Under the pieces are notes generated by a model. That model had not been told where the DNA came from. It ran no database searches and saw nothing but the letters and a program-made list of their open reading frames with translations. Shown in pieces: positions 18,985 to 38,284 of a stretch of 64,000 nucleotides of DNA. Positions within the stretch are counted from its first letter, which is position 1; each line of letters begins with the position of its first letter. A program made the position numbers and the translations under genes. Location of the stretch: NCBI GenBank assembly GCA_963556145.1, contig OY744472.1, positions 620,001 to 684,000 on the forward strand, in the 5' to 3' direction. Source of the DNA: Hygrocybe punicea (lineage: Eukaryota; Basidiomycota; Agaricomycetes; Agaricales; Hygrophoraceae).

Positions 18985-19234
18985 CATGTCCAACCACCTC
19001 TCCCACCGCAGCTCCCACCATGCCTCCCACCACATTTCCCACCTCATTTCCCACCACATCTCCCACCTTGTCTTTACCAACTTTGAAGGCAACATCCAGG
19101 CATCTGAGCGCTGGATGCTTGGATGTTGCCTTCAAAGTCAGTAAAGACAAGGTGGGAGATGCGGTGGGAAATGTGGTGGGAAACATGGTGGGAAACATGG
19201 TGGGAGCCATGGTGGGAGACGCGGTGGAGTGGGG
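18985..19234. repeat. Near-perfect spacerless palindrome (hairpin), arms about 125 bp
   Basis: The arms meet at AGCGCT (19107-19112) with no spacer. Each arm contains a single-copy part (AAGGCAACATCCA), a TTGTCTTTAC word, and a run of about 12-bp units of the form GTGGGAAACATG on one arm and its complement on the other. Identity drops toward the outer ends. It marks the point where the inverted-repeat arm at 19237 is cut short. It could extrude as a cruciform or be transcribed into a long hairpin RNA. Confidence 0.8.
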
Positions 19235-19239
19235 ATGAT

Positions 19240-20343
19240 CATTGCTTCGATGGCCACACCGGAAGCACACATCTGGATCATAATCATGAAACATGGGAGC
19301 ACCATTCACCAATCTCCTTCTGATCAAACAAAAAGTCCAGATCGCACTCTAAATGACAGTTTGAGTGGCAGTCGATGACAAGTGCAAATGGTGTTGTGCT
19401 TTGGCTTAGGAGTATGGTTCTGCGTCATTATATATGTATTCCTGGTCACGACGGTTTCGAATTTCTCATTGATCATCACGGTCTGTGATGCGTTCCGAAT
19501 GATGAACACATTAGCAGACTAGGAAACAGGTGATCCGGGAAAGTACCTGATGCAATGTCTCAAGCTTGACCTTGAGGTGATTCAATGCTGCTCTCTTCTC
19601 CCGCTGCGATATACGCGCGAAAGCAATCACAACCTTCGACTCGATGGCCATTGTCACGTCGAAAAGCTACTGGATAGCGTTGGTTGGCCGATCCGTGCGG
19701 CTGTCCACCCACTGCATGAAATTGACAAACATACGGACTATCTTGTCATAGTTTCCCAAGATCACCTTCCACGACAGCTCAAGTTGGTTCTGTGGCTGAT
19801 TTGCACCACAAACTGCTTGTATTGAGTGACGGAATTCTGGAGCGTCCATTGTTTGGCATCCTGAAGGCAAGAAGTCCATGGACAATGCGTCATTAACATG
19901 AGTTCTCCGCAAACGAATGAGAGAACATGGTCCCGATCGCGGTAACAGCACATTACCCAGCTTCTCTTGGGTTCCATCGACCGAGACGACAACGGCCAGG
20001 TCGCGAATGGTACGGAGGATGCTCGCCCTGTGGGCGTCACCTTGATCCAAACCTCGGGTGTCTGCCAGTCCTGGGGTGTCGAGAATTTGGAACTGAGCGC
20101 CATCGAGTAGAGACGAAATAATACACGACAGCCTCATTGGTCTGGCTGTGTCTGCGCACAAGATCGCTGTTATTAGCGGGGTCATGAAAGAGCTCAAGAT
20201 CGTTGGGCCTCTCGTTCAAAGAACAGGTTGACAAGGAGTGAAAGGAAAGATGTTTTGCCCACGATGGTCTCGCCAATAAGGAGAATAGTCATCACATCCT
20301 TCACAAGTCCTATGACTAATTCAGACGGACTCATTCTGGACAT
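19240..20343 (-). pseudogene. AIG1-like GTPase relic, copy 1
   Basis: The frame starting at 20343 encodes a P-loop (GETIVGKTSFLSLL, fitting GxxxxGKT). A shifted frame gives FHDPANNSDLVRRHSQTNEA, and another gives the G3 motif DTPGLADTRG. The C-terminal remnant reads FHDYDPDVCFRCGHRSNDH. These motifs match the AIG1-type P-loop GTPases that are abundant in Agaricomycetes. Frameshifts and stops separate the pieces, so it is not functional. The copy at 36900 is broken in a similar way, so part of the decay predates the duplication. Confidence 0.7.
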
Positions 20344-20642
20344 CTTTCGACAGAAGAAGGTCACGAAATTATAATAAATATAAGCGCGGGGCTCACTTTG
20401 CAAGGCCAAGTTGATTGGTCAGGGTGGGCCCCGGGTGCCGTTGAGCCTCGCAAAAGGTCATTGGGAATGTTGGCATGACACTAGATGAATTGCAGCTGAA
20501 GGTGGAGAGTCTTGAGAAAGAGAAAGCGCCAGCGCCTGCGTTTCCAAAAGGTTGCATCGATAAGCAAAATCCGTACGCAATCAAGGACGCCACATATTTG
20601 GACAGTACTTGTGTCCCTGAGAGGAGGCTATTCTGAATAGGT

Positions 20643-21026
20643 TTGCAGTGTGTAGCCCAGCGACCGTCATCGATTCATGTGTGTATCGTAAAACATGATG
20701 GAGCCTCTTGCGCTGGACATGGAATCCATTTGTGGTCCGTGGTGTTCTCCCTGATGGCAAGTCCATTGTCTCAGGCTCTGGTGATAAATACCATTCATGT
20801 CTGGGATGCGCGTGATTCGCCAATTGCACCGACCGAGGGGATGTTCGATGCGCCACGCGTCCAGATTCATATCTTCAAAATCCAGGCTATCCATGGTGCT
20901 GTCCTTGGCCTGGGACACCATACCCTGGGCCAGTCCTTGGTTGCCGCCCGGTTATTGCAACTTGTCGTCATCGTCGTGGTTGAACAGGTAGCCCACGTAT
21001 GGATCCAAGCAGGTCGCCCTCAATGA
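20643..21026 (+). pseudogene. WD40-repeat relic, copy 1
   Basis: The reading frames include TIHVWDARDSPIAP and, one frame over, PDGKSIVSGSGDK. Together these form a WD40 blade (the pattern PDGK-IVSGSGDKTI-VWDA). A frameshift separates them. WD40 arrays are common in fungal NLR-type proteins, but no NACHT domain is visible here. Confidence 0.6.
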
Positions 21027-21571
21027 CAGCAGAGCCGTGAGGCATCTTAACCGCTTGCCCTGCGCATTTTGCTCCTGCCCGTCACGCATCGCGGGAACCT
21101 GAGGGTCTTTCGGCGGCCTCACTTCAAGGCACTCCATCAAGCTCTTGCCTCCACAATCATCAGATCAGAAAAGATGATCTACTTCTGAGACGAGACGCCG
21201 TGAAAGAGCGTATAGGATTGAATGAGGAAAAGAGGGCGTGCCTGCTGACCCTGGTCAGATCTTATTGGAGCGACTGTCCTGGCTTCAGGGCTGACAAGGG
21301 ATTCGACGATGCTATCAAGGCTCTTTGTTTCCCTTCAGACCTGATACGGTGGTAAAACCGTGGCGAACGAGTGGTATTGATTTGGATCCGCTGCGAACAT
21401 TGGTTAGTTAGCTCAGGGCCCACTCGTCGAAAGCGTCTTCGTTACCACTTCTTGGCTGCATCTTTGGCGCTTGTGACATTCATGAACAAGTGAGGCCGAT
21501 ATAACTGCAACTTGGGTCCTGATCAATAGCAGTAAATGGTCGAGATAGTCCTCGTGAATGAGAGGTATTAT

Positions 21572-21580
21572 TAGTATTTT
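21572..21580. other. Left target-site duplication of the HECT/integrase element
   Basis: TAGTATTTT here repeats at 29489-29497. The unbroken paralogous copy carries this target once. Three extra bases (TTA) lie just left of it compared with that copy. Confidence 0.75.
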
Positions 21581-21925
21581 ATGACATTATTTTTCACGAA
21601 ATATTTGAGCATTTGGGCCGAACAACTTAGTCAATATCTTAAGGTTAAGGGTTAAAGTGCCGCGGCCGGGAACACCTTGATGTTATAACTTGGACACTTG
21701 TCCTGTACTGGTGGTCAGTACCGTCAGTCGCAACAGGCAAGACTCTTGGTCTGCGACACCACGTATTACACTTTGCCTATAAATATGGCCCATTTTTTTC
21801 CTTTTCTCCTGTTGCGCATTGAGTTCCGTCTGCCGTGCCCTCAGCATATCCACTGTCCTTTCCAATCTTATTTTTTCCACATATTGTGCCTTCCGCTCGT
21901 TCTATTACTTCTCCCAATCACAGAT

Positions 21926-24900
21926 ATGGATCCTGCTCAGCTCAACCCCGAGGAAGTTGCCCAACTCCATCTGCTCTTCACTCGCCTTTATCCTGGACAG
22001 CTTCCACCAACTGCACAACCGCCTTCTCTTCCCCCACCTGCACCTCCCCCACCTGCAATTCCTGCACCTGTCCTTCCTCCACCTGCACCTCCACCATTTC
22101 CCCAAGCCCAGCCACCCATTTCACATCAGTATCAAAGCCAACGTACAATGGGACTTGGCCATCCATCTTCCCAGACGGCTACCCAAGCTTCGGGTCCTTC
22201 TCAACCCTTTCTAGGCTTCAACACTCTCGCGCCGAGTATGGTTGGTCAGGTCAATCAGCAACGGTTGGCATCCTCGGCCGTTTCGCAACCTCGGCAGCCT
22301 CGCCTCCCAAGTTGTAGCCGAAGGGGCCCTGCCGTTCACCCTCCATCCCTCCCTCGTGCAGCGCGTATTGACGACTGTCGAGTGAATGTCATAGATGGCA
22401 ACAGCAACATGGAGGTGGCAGGTATGCGTGTCAAAGTCAAGGTCTATCCCCCTCCGGTATGTATCCAATACTCGTCTCATGACAAGCTAATATTAATGCC
22501 TCAATTTAGGAGATGTCCAACAACGTTCTCGTGGCCTATAGATTCTTGCGGGAATCTTTCAATGCTCAACTGCAAGCCTACTGTCTGCTATACACCTACG
22601 AATTCTCGCTGTTGACATCAGTAGCAACTCTGATGGAACGTGTAATCCAAGACATGGAACGATCTCCCTTTTCTTACCAATTCACTCTGGCTCCAAGAGG
22701 GACGGTATCATTTTCACATGGGGAGATGCTCCATCTTCAACTTCTCGAAATCGTAAACAGAGGTGTTCCTCGTCAAACTGATGGTCAAATCCGGTTGCGA
22801 CGTGCAGTCCATGCAACGCTGACAATAGGTGATTTGGTTGCTAATCGAATGCACTATGCTGTGCCAACAGTTGCAATTGAGGGAAACCACTTCATCATTC
22901 ATCTAGGTGAGACATTGTCATATAATCATTGAACTTGCACTGAGTGATACATAGTCGTCCGTACGTATCCTCTGACAGCCTTGACAAGCCTAGACCCAAC
23001 TCTTCCTGCTCGTGTCCATTCATGCATCTCACGCAAAGTATATTTTCACTTTGAAATGGATGGGTATAGTGGTGCGGTGGATGAAGAGGAACCCTCTTCC
23101 GACGAGGACCTTACTCCAGGACCCAGCGCTACTCCGCTGCGACAATCAGAACGTCTCTTACAACGAACTCAAACTCAAGGTGGCAACAGCAACCCTTCAC
23201 GTTCGTCTGTTCATCCTCCAACACCACCCCTTGACGGCAATGCATATCCTCCCACTCCAACCATCATGCCTCTCCAACGAGGTTATTCTCTCTCCTCGCT
23301 TTATTCTCTTCCTGAAAGCATTTGGAGGGTGCCGTGGGTTCAGTCTCATGGCCACTACATGGGTCTCTTCTCGTTGAGGACTCTTACAGACCATGTTTAT
23401 GAGGCTGCAACAAGTGGCGCGCCGTCAGAACCTCTTAGTCTCCACGGACCAAATCTCAAGGCACTTGTATTGGATTTCAAAGATTTACTTCGAAATGCTG
23501 CAAATGACGGTGATTTCACCAACATTCTTTCTCCAGATCGTTCGTTCTATATGTAAGCCTTGCATTTATGTTCTGGTTACTTCCCTGTACTGATATTGGC
23601 ATAGTACTGAGCAGAGTGGACGGAGGAACCATGTCCGTTCCATAGGTGATGGAATCGAGCGTGAAGTGATCCACACGGTCTTTGAAGAATATCGTCAAGG
23701 AGAAACGCAGTGGTTCACCTCCCATGCTGATGGACAAGCCACACTGACTACAACCCACACTGTTGCGACAGCTAGACATGTTTCACCCTCTCGAAAGCAC
23801 AGCATGGCGGTTCTCGGGGCGGCTACTGCCCTGTGCCTCATTAATGGCATGTCGACCCCTCCTTTGGATCCTGTCTTTCTTCATTTTCTCATTCACAATT
23901 GTGAACTTGATTCCATAAATCCTGCATTCCTTTGAGAATGGCACCCAGACTTGAAACGAACGATCCAAGATTGGATTAGTCTAGGCCCTGATGGAGATCC
24001 ATCGCCATTTCAGATGCATTTTGCAACGTATCATGATCTGCAGGTCAGTTGTGCGTTCAGTGCTGTGCCATTGCCGTTGATTGGGTTTTCCAGGTTGCCT
24101 GCTTGCATGATTGAGATCAAGCGTCCCATGATGCACTGGGAGCAGAAATGCTCTATCGGGCTGTAATTGGTTCAGAACCGTGCACCCACCCTGAAATTCA
24201 AGCGTTCCAGAGTGGCTTTCGGCTGCCTTGTCGCAATGGCTTTACCTTTTATGATGTACGTTATTGTATTCTGTTTTCTTCTACAAATCTCTAATTTTGG
24301 AATGAAAAGGTCGCCAAGTCTTGGGATGGTGGCTCAGAAGTCTTTTTGAGGTCCATTTGGGTGCCCCACATGTCCTCATATGAAGCATTTGAGGATCATC
24401 TTGTCCTCTCCGGCCCGCCAGATGTTTATCAACAGCAGCTGCGAAGAGCCCTTGCCGATGACACCATATCTTTTGCCTCACTTTTTGCTGATTTTCTTAA
24501 AGGCAGCGGGATTCCATGTCCTCAACTCTTTGAGGCTGCGAAGGCTCATTTCAATGAAATTGTCGACTTGAGGCACATTGAAACTGATGGATTTCGGGTC
24601 CGAATGTTTTGTTGGGCAACCACGGGCTCTTACCAACGAGAGGCAGATGCGTTGCAAATCTCTGTATGATTTCATTTATATTTCTGAATGACATCCATTG
24701 TTGACAATTTCACTAGGTAAAATTTGTTGATGATGATGACGCAGGATACGGCAACAGCCAACTCCGAGTAGCCATGATCCCCCATGGAAAGGTATGCTTT
24801 TGAACATGCTTCCAGTGCGCTCGCATCCCCGCCACCTATGCAATCCAACTTGCCACGAAAGTCTATTCCTTTGCGGCTGAACCCTACTCCTTCCGTGATG

Positions 24901-24962
24901 CATTTGACCATTGGTTGATTTGTGAGACGCTGGCGGCCATAGGTAATCATACCATTGCGTGA
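21926..24962 (+). pseudogene. HECT-type E3 ubiquitin-ligase-like gene with three TGA stops
   Basis: A multi-exon gene starts at ATG 21926 (MDPAQLNPEEVAQ) with a Pro-rich N-terminus. Clear introns follow, for example 22457-22509. The C-terminal part is HECT-like: GIEREVIHTVFEEY, then FVDDDDAGYGNSQLRVAMI, the catalytic-site context TCFQCARIPATY with the Cys codon at 24808-24810, and DAFDHW to a stop at 24960-24962. HECT enzymes accept ubiquitin on this Cys and pass it to substrates. Three in-frame TGA codons (23933-23935, 24112-24114, 24802-24804) break this copy. Each becomes Arg CGA by one C-to-T change and falls within otherwise conserved-looking sequence. The integrase gene starts 159 bases downstream on the same strand. 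Confidence 0.7.
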
Positions 24963-25121
24963 TGGACATAATCAGTTATATACCTATATGTCAGTTTGCT
25001 TCATTGCTCTTCGCTTTATGCTACGTTTGACATCGCAATCTTATTAATATAATGCTATTGGACTCTCACGGCACCGTGCTTTGTTCATCGACATTTCTAT
25101 GTTCTGTAGCATCCAAATTAA

Positions 25122-27006
25122 ATGTCCCAAACACCAGTACCAGCATCAAATGTCAATCTCTTGGATGCTTTTCGTGCCCATTATGTTGCCTTTGAACGAC
25201 AGGTAGCAGAAGCTATGACCAGCCCAACCGACTCAACCATCCTGGCAAGACTGGGAGACGATTTGGATACCTACTTGGTTCTAGTGAACGAGGTCTGTCT
25301 TCTGAGCATTGTTGGCACATAATTTAAGTCCACCGTTCCACAGAATATGCATATCTTCGATGCTACTGAACTAGCTACCATTCGCTCAAACCTGAGTATG
25401 ATGCAAACTGATGTGAGACTACAGTATCAACAAACTCTGGATGAATCCCACCATGGACGTCCCACAATCGTTGAGCCAGTTTATACCGGACATCGAGGAC
25501 GCCCACGCTTAGAGATCAATCCAGACTTTCTCCGGTGGGCTTACGCTCTTCGAAGCACATCAGGAATCGCCCGTTTCCTGAATGTTAGTCAAGACACGGT
25601 GCGGAAGGCATTGCTGGAATATGGGATTGCAGAGTCACAATCAAACCCATTCCTTGTATCGTCTGGGATAGAAGATGCCAGAAGGATGGACGTCCCCATG
25701 ATCGGAGACGAACTACTTGATCCCAACTTTGCCCTTCCTACTCAGCTTCCAGCTGACATTGCGACCAGCCCATCTGTGTTGTCCTTCACTGGGCCATTGT
25801 CAACTCTCACAGATGATCAACTAGATGCTGTGATTCTTCAACTTCGCTCGCATTTTCGTCGTGCAGGTATCACCATGCTCCATGGGATGCTACGTCGTCT
25901 TGGCCACAGACTGCCTCATGACCGGATCAGAGGTTCACTAATGCGCATTGACCCTGTCCAGCGAGTCTTTCAGAGGATACAAATTCGGCGTCGAGTGTAC
26001 TCTGTTCCAGGACCCAACTCCCTGTGGCATCATGACGGTCAACACGGTCGGTCATATTTCTCACTGTTCATACTAGGATTGCTTCTGATGTGGTCAAAAA
26101 GGCTTAATCCGATGGGGCATTGTGATCCATGGTTTCATCGACGGATACTCTCGCCTTATCACAGGTCTCCCTGCCAGCAACAACAATTTCGGCAGCACAG
26201 TTTTAGATCTGTTCTTGCATGCTTCGAATGCATACGGAGTTCCATCCCACCTAAGAGGGGATCATGGCGTGGAGAACATTCTCGTGGCAGCTTGGATGGA
26301 GGAGAATCGAGGTGTACGGCGAGGTTCTTATATATGGGGAAGGTAAAGGAGAACTATTAATCTTACATTCTCTCAACTCTTCCTCTTCAGGAGTGTGCAC
26401 AACATTCGCATAGAGCGTCTTTGGGTGGATGTGACAGCTCAAGTGGGAGCATTCTGGGCAGAGATCTTCACCCAGCTCGAGCTGCGATTCGGCTTGGACA
26501 TCAACAATGTTCACCATATCTGGCTACTTCACTATCTATTCCTATCATCCATTAATCAACAGCTCGCTTTTTTTGCAGAATCATGGAACCAACATCGCAT
26601 CCAGATTCGGGACGGCCCAAACCGTTCTCCTGCAGATCTATTTGGATTCGATATGTTTGTCCACGGTGTTCGTGGGGACCAACTCCCTTTGGATGTGCTG
26701 AGCGAGGAAGAATTGGAGGTATACAGTGTAGACTGGGAAGGTCTTCGTGATGAGAGATTACTTCAATCTCGAGGGACCAACAATCCAGGGCACGAAGGGG
26801 CAACTTCCTGGATAGGTCGGGTAGGACCACCGGACCATCTCAACGAAGTAATGTTACAGCCACCTTCTGGATCGCTGTCTGACGCAGAGGTGGGCCGCCT
26901 GGATGAAGCATTGTTAGGGTTACCCCAAAGCCCAGATGAGGCCGATATTATTACACTGTGGCTACATGCTTATGGACACGTCCGAGGTGTTTGTAATGCA
27001 TTTTGA
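25122..27006 (+). CDS. Integrase-core (DDE) protein, probable transposase
   Basis: There are four exons (25122-25292, 25344-26046, 26102-26342, 26391-27006), all GT-AG with consistent phases, encoding 576 aa. The N-terminal region includes a GRPR motif and a helix-turn-helix-like segment (GIARFLNVSQDTVRKAL). The catalytic core has WHHDGQHG, FIDGYSR, GDHGVEN and VHNIRIERLW, so both Asp and the Glu of a retroviral-integrase-type fold are present. This matches the integrase-core family found as isolated genes in mushrooms and animals, distinct from the Gypsy integrase in this window. It should cut and join the element ends. No stop or frameshift was found, so it may be active. Confidence 0.88.
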
Positions 27007-27135
27007 TCATGTTTTATAACTGCCCACAATGAGGTCAATTCACAAATCTAGTATACATAATATACAGAAGAACAGTATGTAACGAGGCGGAAAACTGGCT
27101 GCATAGGCTGTGACCAAAAAAAACAGAACCTAAAT

Positions 27136-27720
27136 TCAATCCACCACAATGCCTAGATACTCCGCAATTTGCTGCTTTCGAGTTGTGACTGTTGGAGCAG
27201 GTACTTGAGGTAAAGCTGGGAGGTTCAGGTACTGTGCAGCTGCGATACAGTTGTTCGCTGGAACACCTAATTAGTAACTGAAGGAGGTAAAGCACAGGAA
27301 CAATACCAGTAAACCCAATTAGTTCTTCACAAGTCCTGGGTGCAGGCGGTGTGAGAGGGCCTTGGACTCCACGCAACGGAGCACTACGACCGGCACTGGC
27401 GTTGGCAAGCTGCATGGGCAGTAGACGTTGGCTGATTACCAGATAATCAGAATTTTAGAGGTTGATATTGAGAAAGAATAAACTCACGTCTGCCTAATGC
27501 CATTAACATTGGTTTGCACATCATCTAAGGTGGTTCTCATATCATCGACTGTGGTTGTCAAGGCCTTAATGAGCCTGGTCAACTCTTGGATGTCATGTCT
27601 GGGATTTGGGATATTTGGGACCCGTTCAATCTGAGTTATGGCCTGCTTCAAGCCTGCGGTGAGTGCAGCAAAATCTGGTTGAGGTAGTGCAGCAGGCATG
27701 GTTCGAGTTGTTGTTTGCAA
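27136..27720 (-). CDS. 162-aa coiled-coil protein of the HECT/integrase element
   Basis: Three exons (27720-27488, 27431-27307, 27266-27136) with GT-AG introns of 56 and 40 nt and matching phases encode 162 aa. The N-terminal exon is a heptad-rich helix (ELTRLIKALTTTVDDMRTTL). The second contains QLANASAGRSAPLRG and the third ends QQIAEYLGIVVD. I recognise it as a small family common in mushrooms but know no function. It converges on the integrase gene, leaving 130 bp between their stops. A coiled coil suggests self-association or a partner role. A decayed relative lies at 18277. Confidence 0.7.
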
Positions 27721-27826
27721 CGTGGCAAAAAAATCAACAACATTTTCAAATACTGCTGCACTGCGATCACAAAATCTGTCCCTGCCAATTTCTCAGCCCC
27801 CCGGCTAAGGATTATATCCACAATGA

Positions 27827-29340
27827 CTACTGATCCCCGATAGGTTTAAGGTGTATAATGATGGCAGCCTTGTTCTGGGAAATGGACGATTGGGTCAATG
27901 CTAATGCCAACTGTACCGGTTCAGAAGCGAAGTCGACATGGTCACTAGTCGGGTATTGTCCAACTTCTACTGGACCTGTGGGGCCCCAGAAATATTTGAT
28001 ACCAAGCCATGTTTTGTACAGGTTGTTCGCATCTGTGCCTGCATATCAAAAGCTTCAGAGACAGGTAGTACAAATATGAACGGTGTGACTGACCATCTGC
28101 TGGCGTTGGACCCTCCCATCGATATAAGTGTGCCGCTTGAGCAGCCCATCTGAACCATTGACACTTGTGTTTATAGGATTCAGGCGACCATTGAAATGCC
28201 TTCACCACGCCGGCAAATGTATGTTCGATATTGTTAATGTTAACCTTCTTTCCAGGAGTATGACAGTCACGGTGGTCTTGGATTCCAAGTACTATCAATA
28301 CTTCGGTCATGCACCGGTGATTGAGAACCATTGGGAGAAGTCGTTTTGTGTTATTCTTGCATTGAGCATCACGAACGGTGGCTGCCGGGAGACCACGCTG
28401 AGCGCAGATTGCTGCAAGTAAGTCACGATATGATTCATGGGCTGGTGGTTGCATTGGTGCCAGATTGTGGTCCAAGTCGTCCGCATGTCCTGAGGTGGTG
28501 GAAGGCGAATTACTCGCTGGGCCGGTGGGAGAAGTTTCCCCCAGACCAAATAAACGAAATCCAGTGTCCTCGCTAACCAGTGGTGATGGTGTGCGATCAA
28601 AACCCACGGGTGAATTGCGTGAGCTTATGACAGATGGGGAATTGCTAAAAGTGCTGTAAAGGAGGGGGGATGCATGTCGAGAGTGATGGCGGGAAATGTT
28701 GGTGAAAATGATGATGAAATGGTTGGCAAGGTCCAGTCCACAAGTATGCCACACCTTGTTGAATCTCTCTGTTTTAGGATCTTCGACAGAGTGGACAGCA
28801 AAAAGCTCTTGCCGATGGTCAAAAAGCGGTGGGGGTAATGCCTGTTCTACCGTTATGCAGGAGAGCAGTCCAAATGAACGATATCCATATATTGGATTTT
28901 GAATATCATCGTCGAAAGCAGGAACCCTGGATGTTGCCACGACAATATCTGAAGTTGAACCTGCAAGAATGTTTGCAATACCCATCGGAACACCCTCTCC
29001 ATTTAAGAATGCTTGGCGGGTGAGTGCTAAAAGGGTTCCTAACACAGCTGACTTGACACCTTCTCTCTGTGCAAGGAAAATACCGCTGACTGGCAAATCC
29101 AGAAATGTGTGAGATTGCAACGTTGAGGCATGGTATGGCGTCAAGACAACAGAACAGCTGATATGTAGGGTGCGACAGAGAGCTAGATATTTCCAGTGTC
29201 AGAAATATGACATGATATGGATGGCATAGTCACCTACCTGCATCTATATCAAGACTTGAGACGCCCTGCATGCCAGCGTTTTTAACGAAACAAGGACCTA
29301 GCTGAGTTTGAATGTACAAACGGAACCGGCCTCGACCCAT
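27827..29340 (-). CDS. 467-aa protein of unknown function in the HECT/integrase element
   Basis: Three exons (29340-29238, 29182-28094, 28038-27827) with GT-AG introns of 55 nt encode 467 aa without interruption. The start MGRGRFRLYIQTQLGPCF was chosen because it follows a short leader. An in-frame upstream start at 29424 would add a hydrophobic stretch. The N-terminal 150 residues look globular. A Ser/Pro/Thr-rich linker near 200-260 is followed by a globular C-terminal half containing WFRWAAQAAHLYRWEG and FWGPTGPVEVGQYP. I recognise no domain. It starts about 150 bp inside the right end of the element and reads inward, so the terminal repeat may serve as its promoter region. Confidence 0.65.
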
Positions 29341-29488
29341 TACACTGTTGCAACTTTGGAGTTGTGTCTTCAGCTGGACAGCACAACAAACATGTAAAGT
29401 TAATAGTAAAAGTACACAAAACACAAAAAGTAGGTATTAAAACTTCTGCAACTAATGAAACTTGAATAAATCATGAAAAATAGTGTTA

Positions 29489-29497
29489 TAGTATTTT
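29489..29497. other. Right target-site duplication of the HECT/integrase element
   Basis: TAGTATTTT matches 21572-21580. The next bases (CTTGTCACCGGCTGCTAATC) resume the inverted-duplication arm and match 35637-35665 in reverse. Confidence 0.75.
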
Positions 29498-30261
29498 CTT
29501 GTCACCGGCTGCTAATCAGGTTGTTACCGTCAAAACATATGTCCAACTCACACTTACCACCTTAGGCAGGACTTCGGGGAGGTTCCCACGGCCTTCAAGG
29601 GGGGGTTCTTATGTGATGGGAAAGTGGCCTTAGAGGCCTGGCTCTCGAGAGCTTCTGCAATACATTTCCCAATCAGTACTAATTACCATATTGTCCTGGG
29701 CATGCCGGGTCATCTTTGCACCTCCAGGTTGCTCCGCTAGAGGCTCGGGTGATGTTCCATATTCTGGGAGCATATAGATATGTTTTCCAAGCATTCAATG
29801 AGCATCCACATGTCTTTTAAGCTACATATTTTATTTTATTTCACTTTTTCGAACCTCCTAGACATTTTTTGAGCCTCCTAGACACTACATTAGCTACTAT
29901 AAGAGTACTCATTCTGAATCATAAATAAATTTTCAAACCTCTTAGACACTAGGGGAGGGTGAGAATGGGGCAGGAGAGATCAGGGAGAGAGGGAGGGAAC
30001 AGGGAGGGGTGAGAGAGAGTGGAGGAAGAGAGGGTGGGACTGGGGCCCGTGGAGCGGCTACCAGGGTGCATCATGGGTCGGGTAAGGGTTAGAGTGGCAT
30101 GACACCATACCCGAACCCTCGTAAACCATACCCGGAACGGGTCTTGGGCAACCCGACGCATTTTGGGAATGGTTTCATGGCCAAACCGTGAGTGGGGGCA
30201 CACCCATGGTTTCACCACCGATCAGGCGTTCTGTTACCTCGTGAGGGTAGCCGGCCACGTC

Positions 30262-30510
30262 AATTGACATGGGCCTCGCCCTCATGAGGTATGTTTTGCC
30301 TTCCCAACCTTGCGAGGTTGGCCGCCGACGTCAATTGATGGGGGCCCGGCCCTCGCGAGGTACTTGGGGGTGGTGCCGGTGCCGGTGCTGGCGTTGGCAC
30401 TGTTGGTGCTGGTGCTAGTGCCAGTGCTATGTTTTGCCTTCCTAACCTCGCGAGGTTGGCCATAGACGTCAATTGACGTGGGCTCGGCCCTCGCGAGGTA
30501 CTCGGGGGTG
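30262..30510. repeat. Tandem repeat of about 175 bp rich in CpG palindromes
   Basis: Units share ATGTTTTGCCTTCC, AACCTCGCGAGGTT, GACGTCAATTGACGT and GGCCCTCGCGAGG, followed by a (GGTGCT)n-like run. The minus-strand open frame (30260-30613) repeats SRGPSPRQLTS and ANLARLGRQNI separated by Ala-Pro runs. I do not treat this as a proven gene. Confidence 0.6.
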
Positions 30511-30779
30511 GTGCCGGTGCTGGCATTGGTGCTGGTGCTGGTGCTGGTGCTGGTGCTGGCCCCTCTTTGTTACCCTCATCGCCGTCACCTCGAAGGCACA
30601 AGACGCACGTCATTCAACGTGCGCTTGGGTTCACGAGGTAACCTATGAGGGGGAGGGGGTAAGTGGATGACGAAAGTAGATAGAAAAAAACATACCTGGG
30701 CCGGAGTGTGGGCGCACCACACCTCCGACCCGGCTTTCCATGCTCCCCATTGTCGTTGTCGGTGTCGTCATTGTCGCGG

Positions 30780-31260
30780 TTTGTTGATTGGAGAGCGGAG
30801 AGGGAGCCAGAGTGGAGGGAGGACAGTGTGGGGAGGAGACAGTGTGGGGTGAGGAGAGAGAGGGGGCTGAGGGAAGAAGAAATGGCAGGGAGGAAGTGAG
30901 AGCGGGGAGAGGGAATGGAGAGAGAACGAGACAGTGGGGAGTGGAAATGGGGAGGAGAGGGGATGGAGAGAGGGAGAGTGTGGGAGAGGTGCGGGGAGGG
31001 AAAAGAGAGAGTGGGAGGAGGGCGGGGGAGTAGGGAGAGAGTGTGGGACCGAGGCGAGAGTGGGGACGGGGAGAGTGAGCGGGTAGAGGAAGAGTGGGCG
31101 GATACCGTTGTGTTCCCATCGTTCCTGCTGTTCCCCTCCTCATTGTCGTCTGCGTTCTTGTCGTCATCCTTTCCCTCCTTGTCGTCTCTGTCACCGTGCC
31201 CATCGGTGTCATCCTCTTTGTCCTCGTCGTCTTCATCGCCTTGTCGTCCTTGCTTCCACT
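30780..31260. repeat. Purine-rich low-complexity tract
   Basis: The plus strand is almost entirely G and A in about 30790-31090 (GAGAGGGAG-type words), then turns to pyrimidine-rich trinucleotides (GTC, CGT). Long open frames on both strands are composition artefacts. Confidence 0.6.
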
Positions 31261-32099
31261 GGTTGTGTTCTCAGCAAAAAACAAGTGAAGTTGTGGTCGG
31301 ATGAGGGTGCAAACGGCTCTGAAATGGGTGCAATGAGCCGCAAAGATGTGAGAGGCAGAACACGAGAGTGGAGAAACTCACCGAGCAAACATGTACTAGT
31401 ATACGTAGTAGTAGTACTAATAGGAATACTTGATGTTTAGTCACGGGTTTGGTTAGCAGGGGTCATCGGATGCACTAACGTACCAAAGTCGCGGCTCCAA
31501 GTAATATCCAGGATGGAGCATGAGCACATGCATGAGCGGCAGTGACTGTTGAAGTGCTTGGTATTTTTTTTCTTGATTTTTGACGCAGTGGTTGTCGAAT
31601 ATGTGTATTTTTACATTCAGTGCACCGTTAAACGATTTCTCATTGGTTGATCAATTGTTGTCGATCTCCGACACCTCTCCGCACCTCTCCCGGACCTCTC
31701 TCGAACCTCTCTCGAACCTCTCCCAAAACCCCGCACCTCTCCCCACCTATACCTTCCATGTTGCAGGTGGTCAGGTGATCAATGTCAATCAACAATCAAT
31801 CAACCAACAAACGCGTCGCGTTTTCTTCTTGTCGCACCTCTCTCTTTCACCCACGCGTCCTGTAAGTCCCTTTCACCTTCCAATCATTCTGCCAAAACTA
31901 ATGACCGAAAAGAGAGGCCAGAAAGGTTCAGGGAGGGTAGAAGAGGGAATATGGTGAGGATACCACAGATGAAGAGGCCAAGGCCGAGGACGAGGACAAT
32001 ATTAATGAGGGAGACGCCGAGGACAACGACGAAGAAGACAACGATGAGGACGAGGACGAGGGGGAGGGGGAGGGGGACGACGACGACAGATGACAAGGT

Positions 32100-32905
32100 C
32101 AGTTCTCTCCCTCTCCCTCTTCTCCCTGCTCTCTCTCTCCCTCCCGCTCCCCGATCCCTCGCTCCCTCTCTGCTTCCCGTTCCCTCCCTCTCCGCTCTCC
32201 GTCCCCCAGTCCCTCTCTCCCCCGCTGTATTTCTCTCCCTGCTCTGCTCTCTCTCTTCCCTCTCCATTCCCTCTCTCCTCCACCTCCATGCGCGCTCTCT
32301 CCCTCCCCCATTCCCTCTCTCCCTGCTCCTCCACTCGCGCTCTCCCTCTCCTCCCTGTTCCCTCTCTCTCCCTCTCCTCCCTGTTCCCTCTCTCTCCCTC
32401 TCCTCCCTGTTCCCTCTCTCTCCCTCTCCTCCCTGTTCCCTCTCTCTCTCTCTCCTCCCTGTTCCCTCTCTCTCCCTCTCCTCCCTGTTCCCTCTCTCTC
32501 CCTCTCCTCCCCACACGCTCTCTCCATGCTCTCTCCCTCTCCCTCCTTCCCCCGCTCTGTCCCTGCTCCCTCCCGCTCCCTCAGGCTGCCGGTTTCCTCC
32601 ATCTCCTCGTTGTCTCTGTCCCCGCTCCCTCCTGGTTTCCTCCCTCTCCTCATTCTCTCTGTCCCCGCTCCCTCCTGCTCCCTCCCCGCTCCCTCCTGCT
32701 CCCTCCCCGTTCCCTCCCTGTTCCCTCCCTGCTCCCTCCCTGCTCCCTCCCTGCTCCCTCCCCGTTCCCTCCCTGCTCCCTCCCTGCTCCCTCCCCGTTC
32801 CCTCCCTGCTCCCTCCCTGCTCCCTCCCTGCTCCCTCCCCGTTCCCTCCCTGCTCCCTCCCCATTCCCTCCCTGCTCCCTCCCTGCTCTCTCCTCTCCCT
32901 CTCCC
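32100..32905. repeat. Polypyrimidine tract of about 800 bp with 24-bp and 12-bp tandem units
   Basis: The plus strand is nearly pure C/T. About 32330-32515 repeats a 24-bp unit (CTCCTCCCTGTTCCCTCTCT...) about seven times. About 32660-32890 repeats CCCTGCTCCCTC or CCCCGTTCCCTC. Such homopurine-homopyrimidine mirror tracts can form triplex DNA. Open frames on both strands here are not credible genes. Confidence 0.75.
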
Positions 32906-33423
32906 TCATTAATTTAGGTGCACACAGCATTTCCGCTGGATGGTGGCCCTGGAGTACTGGGAGGTCCTCTAGTGTCTGAGAGGTTCAATTGCCTCACCGA
33001 GGGCCAGAGCAGCTCAGGTGGAATCCGGGAGGTGGAGGGCGACGTTGGGGCCGATGGTCATCTGCTTGTGACCGCCACTCAGCAACAGCGCCTGCTCTTG
33101 GGATACTACCGATTGACAGGGGCATGGGAGTGGAATTAGTACTATTATAGTAGCTATGTAATGCCTAGGAAGTTCTAGGAGGTTCAAAAAATGTCTAGGA
33201 GGCTCGAAGAAAAAACATTCACTTATAAGACATATGTGGATGCTCATCAAATGCTCAGAAAACATATTTATAGGACCCCAGAAAATGCTCTGGGAGGTCA
33301 GCAAAAATTATGGCGAAGGATCCTCCCGAGACCCGGCCTCGAAGGCCACTTCTCCCTCACATAAGAACCCCCCCTTTGAGGCCGTGGGAACATCCCTAGA
33401 GTGCTGCCTAAGGTGACACTTAC

Positions 33424-35515: not shown

Positions 35516-37990
35516 GACCTGGCTGCGAAGCCTAGATTGCGCAGCCAAACTTGAATCGTGACGGATTCGTCCGGCAACGCAGTAAGTGTGTCTCCGCTGA
35601 GTTGGTTGAGGTTCGATAACATACAACGTTTTGACGATAACAACCTGATCAGCAGCCGGTGACAAGGAAATACTAATACCTCTCATCCACGAGGACCATC
35701 CACGAGGACCATCGCAAGTTGCAGTTATATCGGCCTCACTTGTTCGCATCACAAGCGCGAAACAAAGCCAAAGATGCAGCCAAGAAGTAGTAACGAACAC
35801 GCTTTCGACGAGTGGGCCCTGAGCTAGTCAACCATTGTTCATAGTGGATCCAAATCAACTCCACTCGTTCGCCACGGTTTTACTACCGTATCAGGTCTGA
35901 AGGGAAACAAAGAGCCTTGATAGCATCGTCGAATCCCCTGTCAGCCCCGACTATTCTGAAGCCAGGACAGTCGCTCCAATAAGATCTGACCAGGGTCAGC
36001 AGGCACGCCCTCTTTTCCTCATTCAATCCTATATGCTCTTTCACGGCGTCTCGTCTCAGAAGTAGATCATCTTTTCTGATCTGATGATTGTGGAGGCAAG
36101 AGCTTGATGGAGTGCCTTGAAGTGAGGCCGCCGAAAGACCCTCAGGTTCCCGCGATGCGTGACGGGCAGGAGCAAAATGTGCAGGGCAAGCGGTTAAGAT
36201 GCCTCACGGCTCTGCTGTCATTGAGGACGACCTGCTTGGATCCATACGTGGGCTACCTGTTCAACCACGACGATGACGACAAGTTGCAATAACCGGGCGG
36301 CGACCAAGGACTGGCCCGGGGTATGGTGTCCCAGGCCAAGGACAGCACCATGGATAGCCTGCATTTTAAAGATATGAATCTGGACGCATGGCGCATCGAA
36401 CATCCCCTCGGTCGGTTAAATTGGCGAATCACGCGCATCCCAGACATGACTGGTATTTATCACCAGAGCCTGAGACAATGGACTTGCCATCAGGGAGAAC
36501 ACCACGGACCACAAATGGATTCCATGACCAGCGCAAGAGGCTCCATCATGTTTTACGATACACACATGAATCGATGACGGTCGCTGAGCTGCACACTGCA
36601 AACATATTCAGAATAGCCTCCTCTCAGGGACACAAGTACTGTCCAAATATGTGGCGTCTTGATTGCGTACGGATTTTGCTTATCGATGCAACCTTTTGGA
36701 AACGCTGGGGCTGGGGCCTTCTCTTTCTCAAGACTCTCCACCTTCAGCTGCAATTTATCTAGTGCCATGCCAACATTCCCAATGACCTTTTGCGAAGCTC
36801 AACGGCACCCGGGGCCCACCCTGACCAATCAACTTGGCCTTGCAAAGTGAGCCCCGCGCTTGTATTTATTATAATTTCGTGACCTTCTTCTGTCCAAAGA
36901 TGTCCAGATTAAGGCCGTCTGAACTAGTCATAGGACTTGTGAAGGATGTGAAGATTATTCTCCTTATTGGCGAGACCATCGTGGGCAAAACATCTTTCCT
37001 TTCACTCCTTGTCAACCTGTTGTTTGAACGAGAGGCCCAACGATCTTGGGCTCTTTCATGACCCCGCCAATGAGAGCGATCTTGTGCGCAGACACAGCCA
37101 GACCAATGAGGCTGTCGTGTGTGATTTCGTCTCTACCTGATGGCGCTCAGTTCCCAATTCTCGACACCCCGGGATTGGCAGACACCCGAGGTTTGAATCA
37201 AGGTGACGCCCACAGGGCGAGCATCCTCCGTACCATTCGCGACCTGGCCGTTGTCGTCTCGGTCGATGGAACTCAAGAGAAGCTGGGCATTGCTACTGAA
37301 TGTGCTGTTACCGCGATCGGGACCATGTTCTCTCATTCCGCATTGTCCATGGACTTCTTGCCTTCAGGATGCCAAACAATGGACAATCCAGAATTCCGTC
37401 ACTCAATTCCTTAAATACAAGCAATTTGTGGTGCAAATCAGCCACAGAACCAACTTGAGCTGTTGTGGAAGGTGGTCTTGGGAAACCAGGGCAAGATATG
37501 TTTGTCAATTTCATGCAGTGGGTGGACAGCCGCACGGATCGGCCAACCAACGCTATCCAGGAGCTTTTCGACGTGACAATGGCCATCGAGTCGAAGGTTG
37601 TGAATGCTTTCGCGCGTATATCGCAGCGGGAGAAGAGAATCACCTCAAGGTCAAGCTCGAGCCATTGCATCAGGTACTTTCCCGTTTCACATCAGATCAC
37701 CTGTTTCCCAGTCCGCTAATGTGTTTATCATTCGGAACGCGTCACAGACCATGACGATCAATGAGAAATTCGAGACCATCATGACCAGGAATACATATAA
37801 TGACGCAGAAGCATACCCCTAAGCCAAAGCACAACACCATTTGTACCCGTCATCGACTGCTACTCAAACTGTCATTTAGAGTGCGATCTGGACTTTTTCT
37901 TTGATCAGAAGGAGATTGGCGAACGGCGCTCCCATGTTTCACGATTATGGTCCAGATGTGTGCTTCCAGTGTGGCCATCGAAGCAATGAT
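35516..37990 (+). repeat. Right arm of the large inverted duplication (unbroken copy)
   Basis: This copy is the reverse of 33492-33424, 29557-29498 and 21571-19237 joined. It lacks both insertions and so provides their empty sites (about 35580 for ACACTTAC and 35667-35675 for TAGTATTT). It also duplicates a short CCACGAGGACCAT unit near 35695. Similarity ends near 37990 because the left arm is truncated, while this copy continues into the rest of the GTPase relic. Confidence 0.85.
36395..36601 (-). pseudogene. WD40-repeat relic, copy 2
   Basis: The minus strand reads HVWDARDSPI with an upstream shifted PDGK-type blade, as in the copy at 20643-21026. Frameshifts break it. Confidence 0.55.
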
Positions 37991-38284
37991 CACCACGACT
38001 ACCATGCCATCTGGGCAGCAAGAAACGGTGCATGAGTACAAAGCAAAAGCTGCGTATGATCGGGCCAAAAAGAAAGGCGGTGACACTCAAATCGCAGGTA
38101 CGGCGATAGGGGGCGCCCCCTGCGCCGGATGGACCGTGACATCACGGATGCCGAGCAGCAAAGTCGTCAGACTCTTTGTGCGAAGTTCAACCTTTCTCTG
38201 TCTCGATAACCGTGACATATCCGCGTTCATTGATTCCCACAACCTTTTTCATGGTGTGGAACGGTCTGGAGGGGATGACAGTTG
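36900..38284 (+). pseudogene. AIG1-like GTPase relic, copy 2
   Basis: The start MSRLRPSELVIGLVKD leads into the P-loop GETIVGKTSF, then frameshifts. The G3 motif DTPGLADTRG is intact in another frame (about 37165-37200). C-terminal pieces read FHDYGPDVCFQCGHRSNDHH and, further on, EYKAKAAYDRAKKKGGD. Stops at several points make it non-functional. It extends beyond the left copy by about 300 bases. Confidence 0.7.

What the first reader, a model, noticed from the sequence alone, without database searches (positions are those of the whole stretch)
21572..29497. A four-gene DNA element pairing a HECT ubiquitin ligase with an integrase-core transposase
The sequence directly shows about 28-bp imperfect terminal inverted repeats, a 9-bp duplication (TAGTATTTT) and an empty site in the unbroken inverted copy at 35667-35675. 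Enclosed are a HECT-like gene, a 576-aa DDE integrase-core gene with intact catalytic residues, and two intact minus-strand genes. An integrase-core transposase travelling with a ubiquitin ligase and two unknown proteins fits no DNA transposon class I can name. Integrase-core and HECT-type genes are known as expanded families in fungi and animals. Their joint mobility is my inference.
Basis: partly seen in the sequence, partly recalled or inferred. Interest (0 to 1): 0.92.

Follow-up and report, generated by a model that had tools for sequence, protein, structure and literature searches.

The report
Jumping gene carrying a ubiquitin ligase
In a genome that is likely a mushroom's, six nearly identical copies of one DNA transposon, some with broken genes, each hold a predicted transposase gene together with a predicted HECT-type ubiquitin ligase gene, a pairing that recurs beside distantly related transposase genes in the same genome and would be an unusual tool for a jumping gene to carry.

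Summary
The finding is real. The element spans 21580-29490 (7,911 bp) and is one of six copies, 98.8-99.9% identical, in this 92-Mb genome. Its target-site duplication is 6 bp (5 of 5 flank pairs exact), not 9; the other bases of TAGTATTTT are chance matches between flank and element ends. TA..TA ends, 6-bp duplications, a DDE integrase core without HHCC motif and IS481/IS3 similarity match the published description of IS3EU/GingerRoot transposons, so a known class does fit. The HECT call rests on fold: a homologue's AlphaFold2 model matches HECT ligases (Foldseek best E 8e-6), though Pfam HECT is not detected. The expected cysteine is kept in all 9 of 15 homologues covering that stretch. The window's own HECT-like gene has three stops; it is open in two other copies. 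A second, diverged HECT-like family lies within 5 kb of integrase loci at 9 of 17 places (about 1% expected); 0 of 7 ordinary HECT loci do. Against: 59 of 74 integrase loci have no HECT-like gene detected within 12 kb. Fungal IS3EU elements with TET/JBP and alpha-kinase genes are published; my nine paper searches found none with HECT. What the ligase does for the element is inference.

The parts
21574..21579 (.). left copy of the 6-bp target-site duplication GTATTT
   Evidence: 5 of 5 flank pairs show an exact 6-bp duplication
21580..21609 (+). left terminal inverted repeat, begins TATGACATTATTTTTCACG
   Evidence: 23 of 30 bases match the right end
21926..24962 (+). gene 1, HECT-like; 7 exons (21926-22456, 22510-22906, 22955-23552, 23605-24043, 24094-24255, 24310-24663, 24717-24962); in this copy in-frame stops at 23933, 24112 and 24801; open (908 aa) in copies C1 and F
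   Evidence: fold of homologue P0124:
25122..27006 (+). gene 2, integrase-core transposase, 576 aa, 4 exons (25122-25292, 25344-26046, 26102-26342, 26391-27006); D288, D345, E380
   Evidence: (PF24764 E 1.4e-65)
27136..27699 (-). gene 4, 155 aa, function unknown; exons 27488-27699, 27307-27431, 27136-27266; open in 6 of 6 copies
27827..29340 (-). gene 3, 467 aa, no confident family; exons 29238-29340, 28094-29182, 27827-28038; open in 4 of 6 copies (E is shifted by one base, F is cut by an assembly gap)
29461..29490 (-). right terminal inverted repeat, ends TGTTATA
29491..29496 (.). right copy of the duplication GTATTT
35668..35673 (-). empty site (single GTATTT) in the unbroken arm of the inverted repeat

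Best explanation
This is a four-gene DNA transposon of likely IS3EU/GingerRoot type whose integrase-core protein likely cuts and pastes it by its TA...TA ends, and whose second enzyme is predicted to be a HECT-type ubiquitin ligase that would tag a host protein to help the element move or escape silencing. Shown: six near-identical copies, shared ends, 6-bp duplications in five flank pairs, an empty site, DDE residues, and the recurrent HECT-integrase neighbourhood. Predicted: the HECT fold (AlphaFold2 model of a homologue) and the ligase cysteine (conserved motif, F-R-T-C in the open copies). Inferred: that the protein transfers ubiquitin, that the target is a host protein, and that the target belongs to silencing or DNA repair. 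The pressure is visible: private mutations of the copies are mostly C-to-T at CpG, as expected from methylation followed by deamination. Fungal transposons of several superfamilies, IS3EU among them, are reported to carry TET/JBP dioxygenases thought to undo such methylation (PMC12730594); a HECT ligase acting against a silencing protein would be a protein-level counterpart. Genes 3 and 4 remain unassigned; gene 3 also lies beside a 64%-identical integrase elsewhere, so it probably belongs to the core set.
Against: Pfam HECT is not detected in gene 1 (0 families at E up to 1), and a profile comparison with one ordinary HECT of this genome gives probability 0.5%. The HECT call rests on a predicted fold whose superposition is loose: Foldseek TM-scores by the query are 0.30-0.37 for the ten rows at E up to 0.001, and VIA-align rmsd is 4.6 or more. 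The modelled homologue's annotated sequence lacks the cysteine stretch. The window's gene 1 is broken, and in none of the six copies do all four genes read open by projection of my exon models. 59 of 74 integrase loci have no HECT-like gene detected within 12 kb. No activity, target or expression was measured.
Confidence: 0.62

Rival explanations
1. The HECT-like protein acts on the element's own proteins: it ubiquitinates the transposase or its partners to limit copy number or to disassemble the strand-transfer complex, rather than attacking the host.
For: Tight linkage with the integrase in two diverged HECT-like families; low copy number of this family, six copies.
Against: Nothing direct; many integrase relatives do without a detected HECT-like gene (59 of 74 loci).
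Confidence: 0.2
2. The HECT-like gene is a captured passenger with no role in transposition, kept because copies are young.
For: Cargo genes move between fungal transposon superfamilies (TET/JBP, PMC12730594 passages); gene 1 is broken or interrupted in 4 of 6 copies.
Against: The same kind of gene recurs beside diverged integrases in this genome; homologues in other fungi keep the cysteine in all 9 of 15 that cover it; 3 of 15 homologues lie on a contig of the same length as a listed integrase of that species.
Confidence: 0.15
3. It is a member of a new DNA transposon superfamily, distinct from IS3EU/GingerRoot, defined by the PF24764 integrase and the HECT-like gene.
For: PF24764 is a separate Pfam family from rve; IS481 and IS3 models match only below cut-off; no IS3EU transposase sequence was at hand for comparison.
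Against: TA..TA ends and 6-bp duplication are those given for IS3EU/GingerRoot; no HHCC motif.
Confidence: 0.1
4. The neighbourhood is a host segmental duplication that happens to contain both genes, not a transposon.
For: Six near-identical copies alone would allow it.
Against: Shared sequence ends at the TIRs where both ends could be read, five different 6-bp duplications, one empty site.
Confidence: 0.01

Closest known systems
IS3EU/GingerRoot DNA transposons (PMC10045372, outline and passages seen)
   Same: TA..TA termini (GingerRoot: mostly), 6-bp target-site duplication (IS3EU: usually), DDE integrase core without HHCC motif, IS3/IS481 kinship
   Different: carries a HECT-like gene and two unassigned genes; transposase not compared directly with Repbase IS3EU sequences
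TET-carrying IS3EU of rusts and Tuber (PMC12730594, outline and passages seen)
   Same: fungal IS3EU with accessory genes thought to help against silencing; in the rust families TAYGG..CCRTA ends and 6-bp duplication
   Different: accessory genes there are TET/JBP and alpha-kinase; the words HECT and ubiquitin do not occur in that main text
HECT E3 ubiquitin ligases (UBR5, WWP2, HUWE1 and others in the fold search)
   Same: predicted overall HECT arrangement, conserved cysteine near the C-terminus
   Different: below Pfam detection, proline-rich N-terminus, transposon-borne
Ulp1/OTU protease cargo of MULE, CACTA and Helitron elements (recalled, no call)
   Same: transposons carrying an enzyme of the ubiquitin/SUMO system
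   Different: those remove modifiers; this one is predicted to attach ubiquitin

Membership tests
IS3EU/GingerRoot superfamily | TA..TA termini | tested here: met
   TATGACA at the left end of 6 of 6 copies...TGTTATA at the right ends read: window, C1, C36, C6a
IS3EU/GingerRoot superfamily | 6-bp target-site duplication | tested here: met
   5 of 5 flank pairs exact, one of them the outer flanks of the E/F pair
IS3EU/GingerRoot superfamily | DDE integrase core, no upstream HHCC motif, IS3/IS481 kinship | tested here: met
   D288/D345/E380, no HHCC, no Cys before D288; IS481 1.1e-9 and IS3 0.0049, below curated cut-offs
IS3EU/GingerRoot superfamily | transposase groups with known IS3EU/GingerRoot sequences in a tree | not testable with these tools
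   no Repbase sequences at hand; GingerRoot paper not held
HECT E3 ligase | HECT fold | tested here: met
HECT E3 ligase | catalytic cysteine in the C-lobe | tested here: met
   by alignment only: Cys in all 9 of 15 homologues covering it, preceded by T in 8 of the 9; residue 858 of 908 in copy C1
HECT E3 ligase | detection by Pfam PF00632 (an aid to detection rather than a defining feature) | tested here: not met
   no match at E up to 1 for the window gene with X at two stops and my false last intron; the corrected protein was not rescanned. Hence filed as HECT-like by predicted fold, not as a Pfam HECT member
HECT E3 ligase | ubiquitin thioester and transfer | not testable with these tools
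   needs a bench assay
MULE (8-9-bp duplication, recalled; considered because of the reported 9 bp) | 8-9-bp duplication | tested here: not met
   duplication is 6 bp

The most novel reading that the evidence does not exclude
A lineage of fungal IS3EU transposons carries its own HECT ubiquitin ligase as a conserved working part, used to destroy host silencing or repair proteins: a transposon-encoded E3 ligase that disarms genome defence at the protein level.
Probability: 0.35. Interest if true: 0.8.

Novelty: new variant of a known kind. Interest (0 to 1): 0.6.

Why it matters
How DNA transposons outlast host silencing in methylated fungal genomes is open. Transposon-borne TET/JBP enzymes are one proposed answer (PMC12730594); a transposon-borne ubiquitin ligase would be a second, acting on proteins. 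It could also mean that many HECT-like and integrase-core genes of mushroom genomes are parts of one mobile kit rather than host gene families. The ligase and its targets can be tested directly.

Tried and rejected
Nine-base duplication and MULE-like reading: rejected by the other flank pairs. A 7-bp duplication starting AG was my intermediate reading; the C6a left flank (GGAATAT against AGAATAT) and the T/A symmetry of the ends favoured 6. A 24-nt last intron in gene 1 was my error; homologues show that stretch is coding and holds the cysteine; corrected. One search used the copy C1 protein and the window protein with that false intron. Gene 3: Pfam nothing over cut-off, three homologues, AlphaFold2 model useless (mean pLDDT 35.1), so no fold search. 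Gene 4: only weak matches below cut-offs. Solved-structure sequence search with the gene-1 alignment: one hit, E 1.5. One homologue also gave a weak, unrelated QnrE match (E 0.019). HECT-like gene by profile in integrase loci L062-L064: none convincing. Short pattern TGTTATAG: uninformative. Right end of the other integrase family (L062/L063): not found (first places listed only). Papers: (nine answered searches); HECT with IS3EU 0 papers; HECT with transposon, Mycena and integrase 0; HECT domain with DNA transposon and transposase 1 paper, on bacterial death domains, seen in the listing only. Subscription papers and preprints were not searched.

Controls and limits: one search scored 76 of 200 candidates and 150 of 180 and left some matches unlisted, so integrase counts are lower bounds. 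The 74 integrase loci are my merge (under 5 kb) of places copied by hand, not every exon row. The 17 family-B loci are my grouping of the 54 matches; they are not independent, and some rest on one short match (C34:206224 covers 21 residues). The 7 PF00632 loci are my grouping of the 15 matches. Gene 1 of the window family lies within 5 kb of its integrase in 5 of 6 copies; the sixth is 11 kb away because of a nested insert.
Full report
Observation. The integrase gene is 576 aa in four exons and the HECT-like gene lies upstream on the same strand; two genes of 467 and 155 aa lie on the minus strand. TAGTATTTT stands at both edges. The unbroken arm of a large inverted repeat shows the site without the element.

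Copies. Searching the window's own genome (92.2 Mb, 42 contigs) with the integrase and with part of gene 1 gave six places where both occur: C40 (the window), C1, C36 and three on C6. Aligned, the copies are 98.8-99.9% identical. The C1 copy is uninterrupted and matches the window over the whole element. C36, C6a, E and F contain nested inserts; E and F lie tail to tail around an assembly gap.

Ends and duplication. The left-end 20-mer occurs exactly at six places, one per copy, plus one two-mismatch place on C2 (reversed control 2 hits). The right-end 19-mer occurs exactly three times and with one mismatch twice (control 0). The flanks read GTATTT, GTTTCT, GCTCGT, GAATAT and GTACTC on both sides: 5 of 5 exact 6-bp duplications. 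Three notes on these pairs: the C36 right end was read outside an extra repeat of the last 15 bases; the C6a left end lies beyond a further insert and was read in a separate small fetch; and the fifth pair is the outer flanks of E and F taken together. Four of five have A before the left copy, and five of five begin with G. The element is therefore 21580-29490, TATGACA...TGTTATA.

Transposase. Gene 2 matches Pfam PF24764 (rva_4, integrase core) at 1.4e-65 and rve below its cut-off. Catalytic-type residues are D288, D345, E380 with 56 and 34 residues between; there is no HHCC motif and no cysteine upstream. The curated prokaryotic models matched are IS481 (1.1e-9; down to 9.2e-17 in the three homologues tested) and IS3 (0.0049; down to 9e-5), below curated cut-offs. 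Kojima and Bao (PMC10045372; outline and passages seen) state that complete IS3EU families always have TA..TA termini and usually 6-bp duplications, that GingerRoot generates 6-bp duplications with mostly TA..TA termini, and that both lack HHCC. The element fits on each feature tested. I could not place it in a tree with real IS3EU sequences.

HECT-like gene. Pfam found nothing in gene 1. Fifteen homologues were found, from Rickenella, Pholiota, Trametes, Mycena, Fomitopsis, Artomyces and Favolaschia (all Agaricomycetes, recalled); one is named HECT domain-containing by UniRef. An AlphaFold2 model of homologue P0124 with all 15 (mean pLDDT 75.7, residues 1-90 under 50) matched HECT ligases in Foldseek rows 1-13, ten of them at E up to 0.001, with query TM-scores of only 0.30-0.37 in those ten, and in the 50 VIA-align rows shown. 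The cysteine of the F-R-T-C motif is present in all 9 of 15 rows that cover it, preceded by T in 8. In the window copy gene 1 has in-frame stops at codons 619, 662 and 856; it is open, 908 aa, in C1 and F, and interrupted by inserts, incomplete or shifted in C36, C6a and E. The integrase is open in the window and C36, gene 3 in four of six, gene 4 in six of six. No copy is open in all four genes by this projection.

Recurrence. A profile of gene 1 weakly recognised ORFs beside two diverged integrases (L035, L065; best E 0.0004); a profile comparison of the L065 gene with the gene-1 family gave 95.7% probability over 294 columns at 22% identity, with the T-C motif in register. Searching the genome with that second gene gave 54 matches, which I grouped into 17 loci. 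Seven lie within 1 kb of an integrase locus and nine within 5 kb, against about 1% expected for 74 integrase loci. The seven closest run convergently with the integrase by the strands listed (six, the C39 one); in the window family the two genes run in the same direction, so the arrangement differs. Of seven loci with ordinary PF00632 HECT domains none is within 200 kb of an integrase locus. Against the reading: 59 of 74 integrase loci have no HECT-like gene detected within 12 kb, and seven of the 17 family-B loci have no listed integrase within 6 kb. In other species, 3 of 15 gene-1 homologues share their contig length with an integrase of that species among the 120 listed of 580, which suggests but does not show adjacency.

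Gene 3. It occurs in the six copies and, at about 50% identity, beside the 64%-identical integrase at C39:5472-5475 kb, divergently oriented; no gene-1 relative was found there. A fragment with a right end lies on C2. Three homologues were found outside, without names or species, one of them 96% identical over 67% of the query. Its function is open.

Silencing. Of 126 changes private to one copy, 111 are C-to-T or G-to-A and 97 of these are at CpG, against 594 of 3,753 C positions. The copies were thus probably CpG-methylated. Kojima 2025 (PMC12730594; outline and passages seen) reports fungal IS3EU with TET/JBP and alpha-kinase genes and argues that TET likely helps escape methylation; HECT and ubiquitin do not occur in its main text. 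The HECT-type ligase as a counter-silencing tool is my inference from this setting.

Conclusion. A real, probably recently active, IS3EU-type transposon with a kind of cargo that I found in none of nine paper searches, and that recurs in the genome. The class is known; the cargo makes it a new variant.

Noticed in passing
L062 and L063 (C3 from 6820850, C39 from 1387417): Another integrase family, 99.98% identical over at least 4,985 bp, starts TATGACGGG (the same first six bases as this element); downstream ORFs look like an ABC transporter (by eye, no family search). Seven places in the genome have that left end with at most one mismatch.
   Followed up: partly
C6:4660041-4691923: Two copies (E, F; 99.91% identical) lie tail to tail around an assembly gap, and the pair as a whole is flanked by one 6-bp duplication GTACTC: a dimer that moved as one unit, or an assembly join.
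   Followed up: partly
C36 right end; outer end of copy F: About the last 15 bases of the end are repeated once more outside the normal end.
   Followed up: no
C3:8142927-8236458: Pattern hits at a steady spacing of about 1,456 bp, also on C4: a long tandem array near a contig end, perhaps subtelomeric.
   Followed up: no
window 19228-21468 and 35767-38000: Large inverted repeat, arms 91-100% complementary by segment, with over 14 kb between the arms; the element sits in one arm.
   Followed up: no
window 29950-32950: Low-complexity purine/pyrimidine-rich block with long overlapping ORFs on both strands, probably not genes.
   Followed up: no
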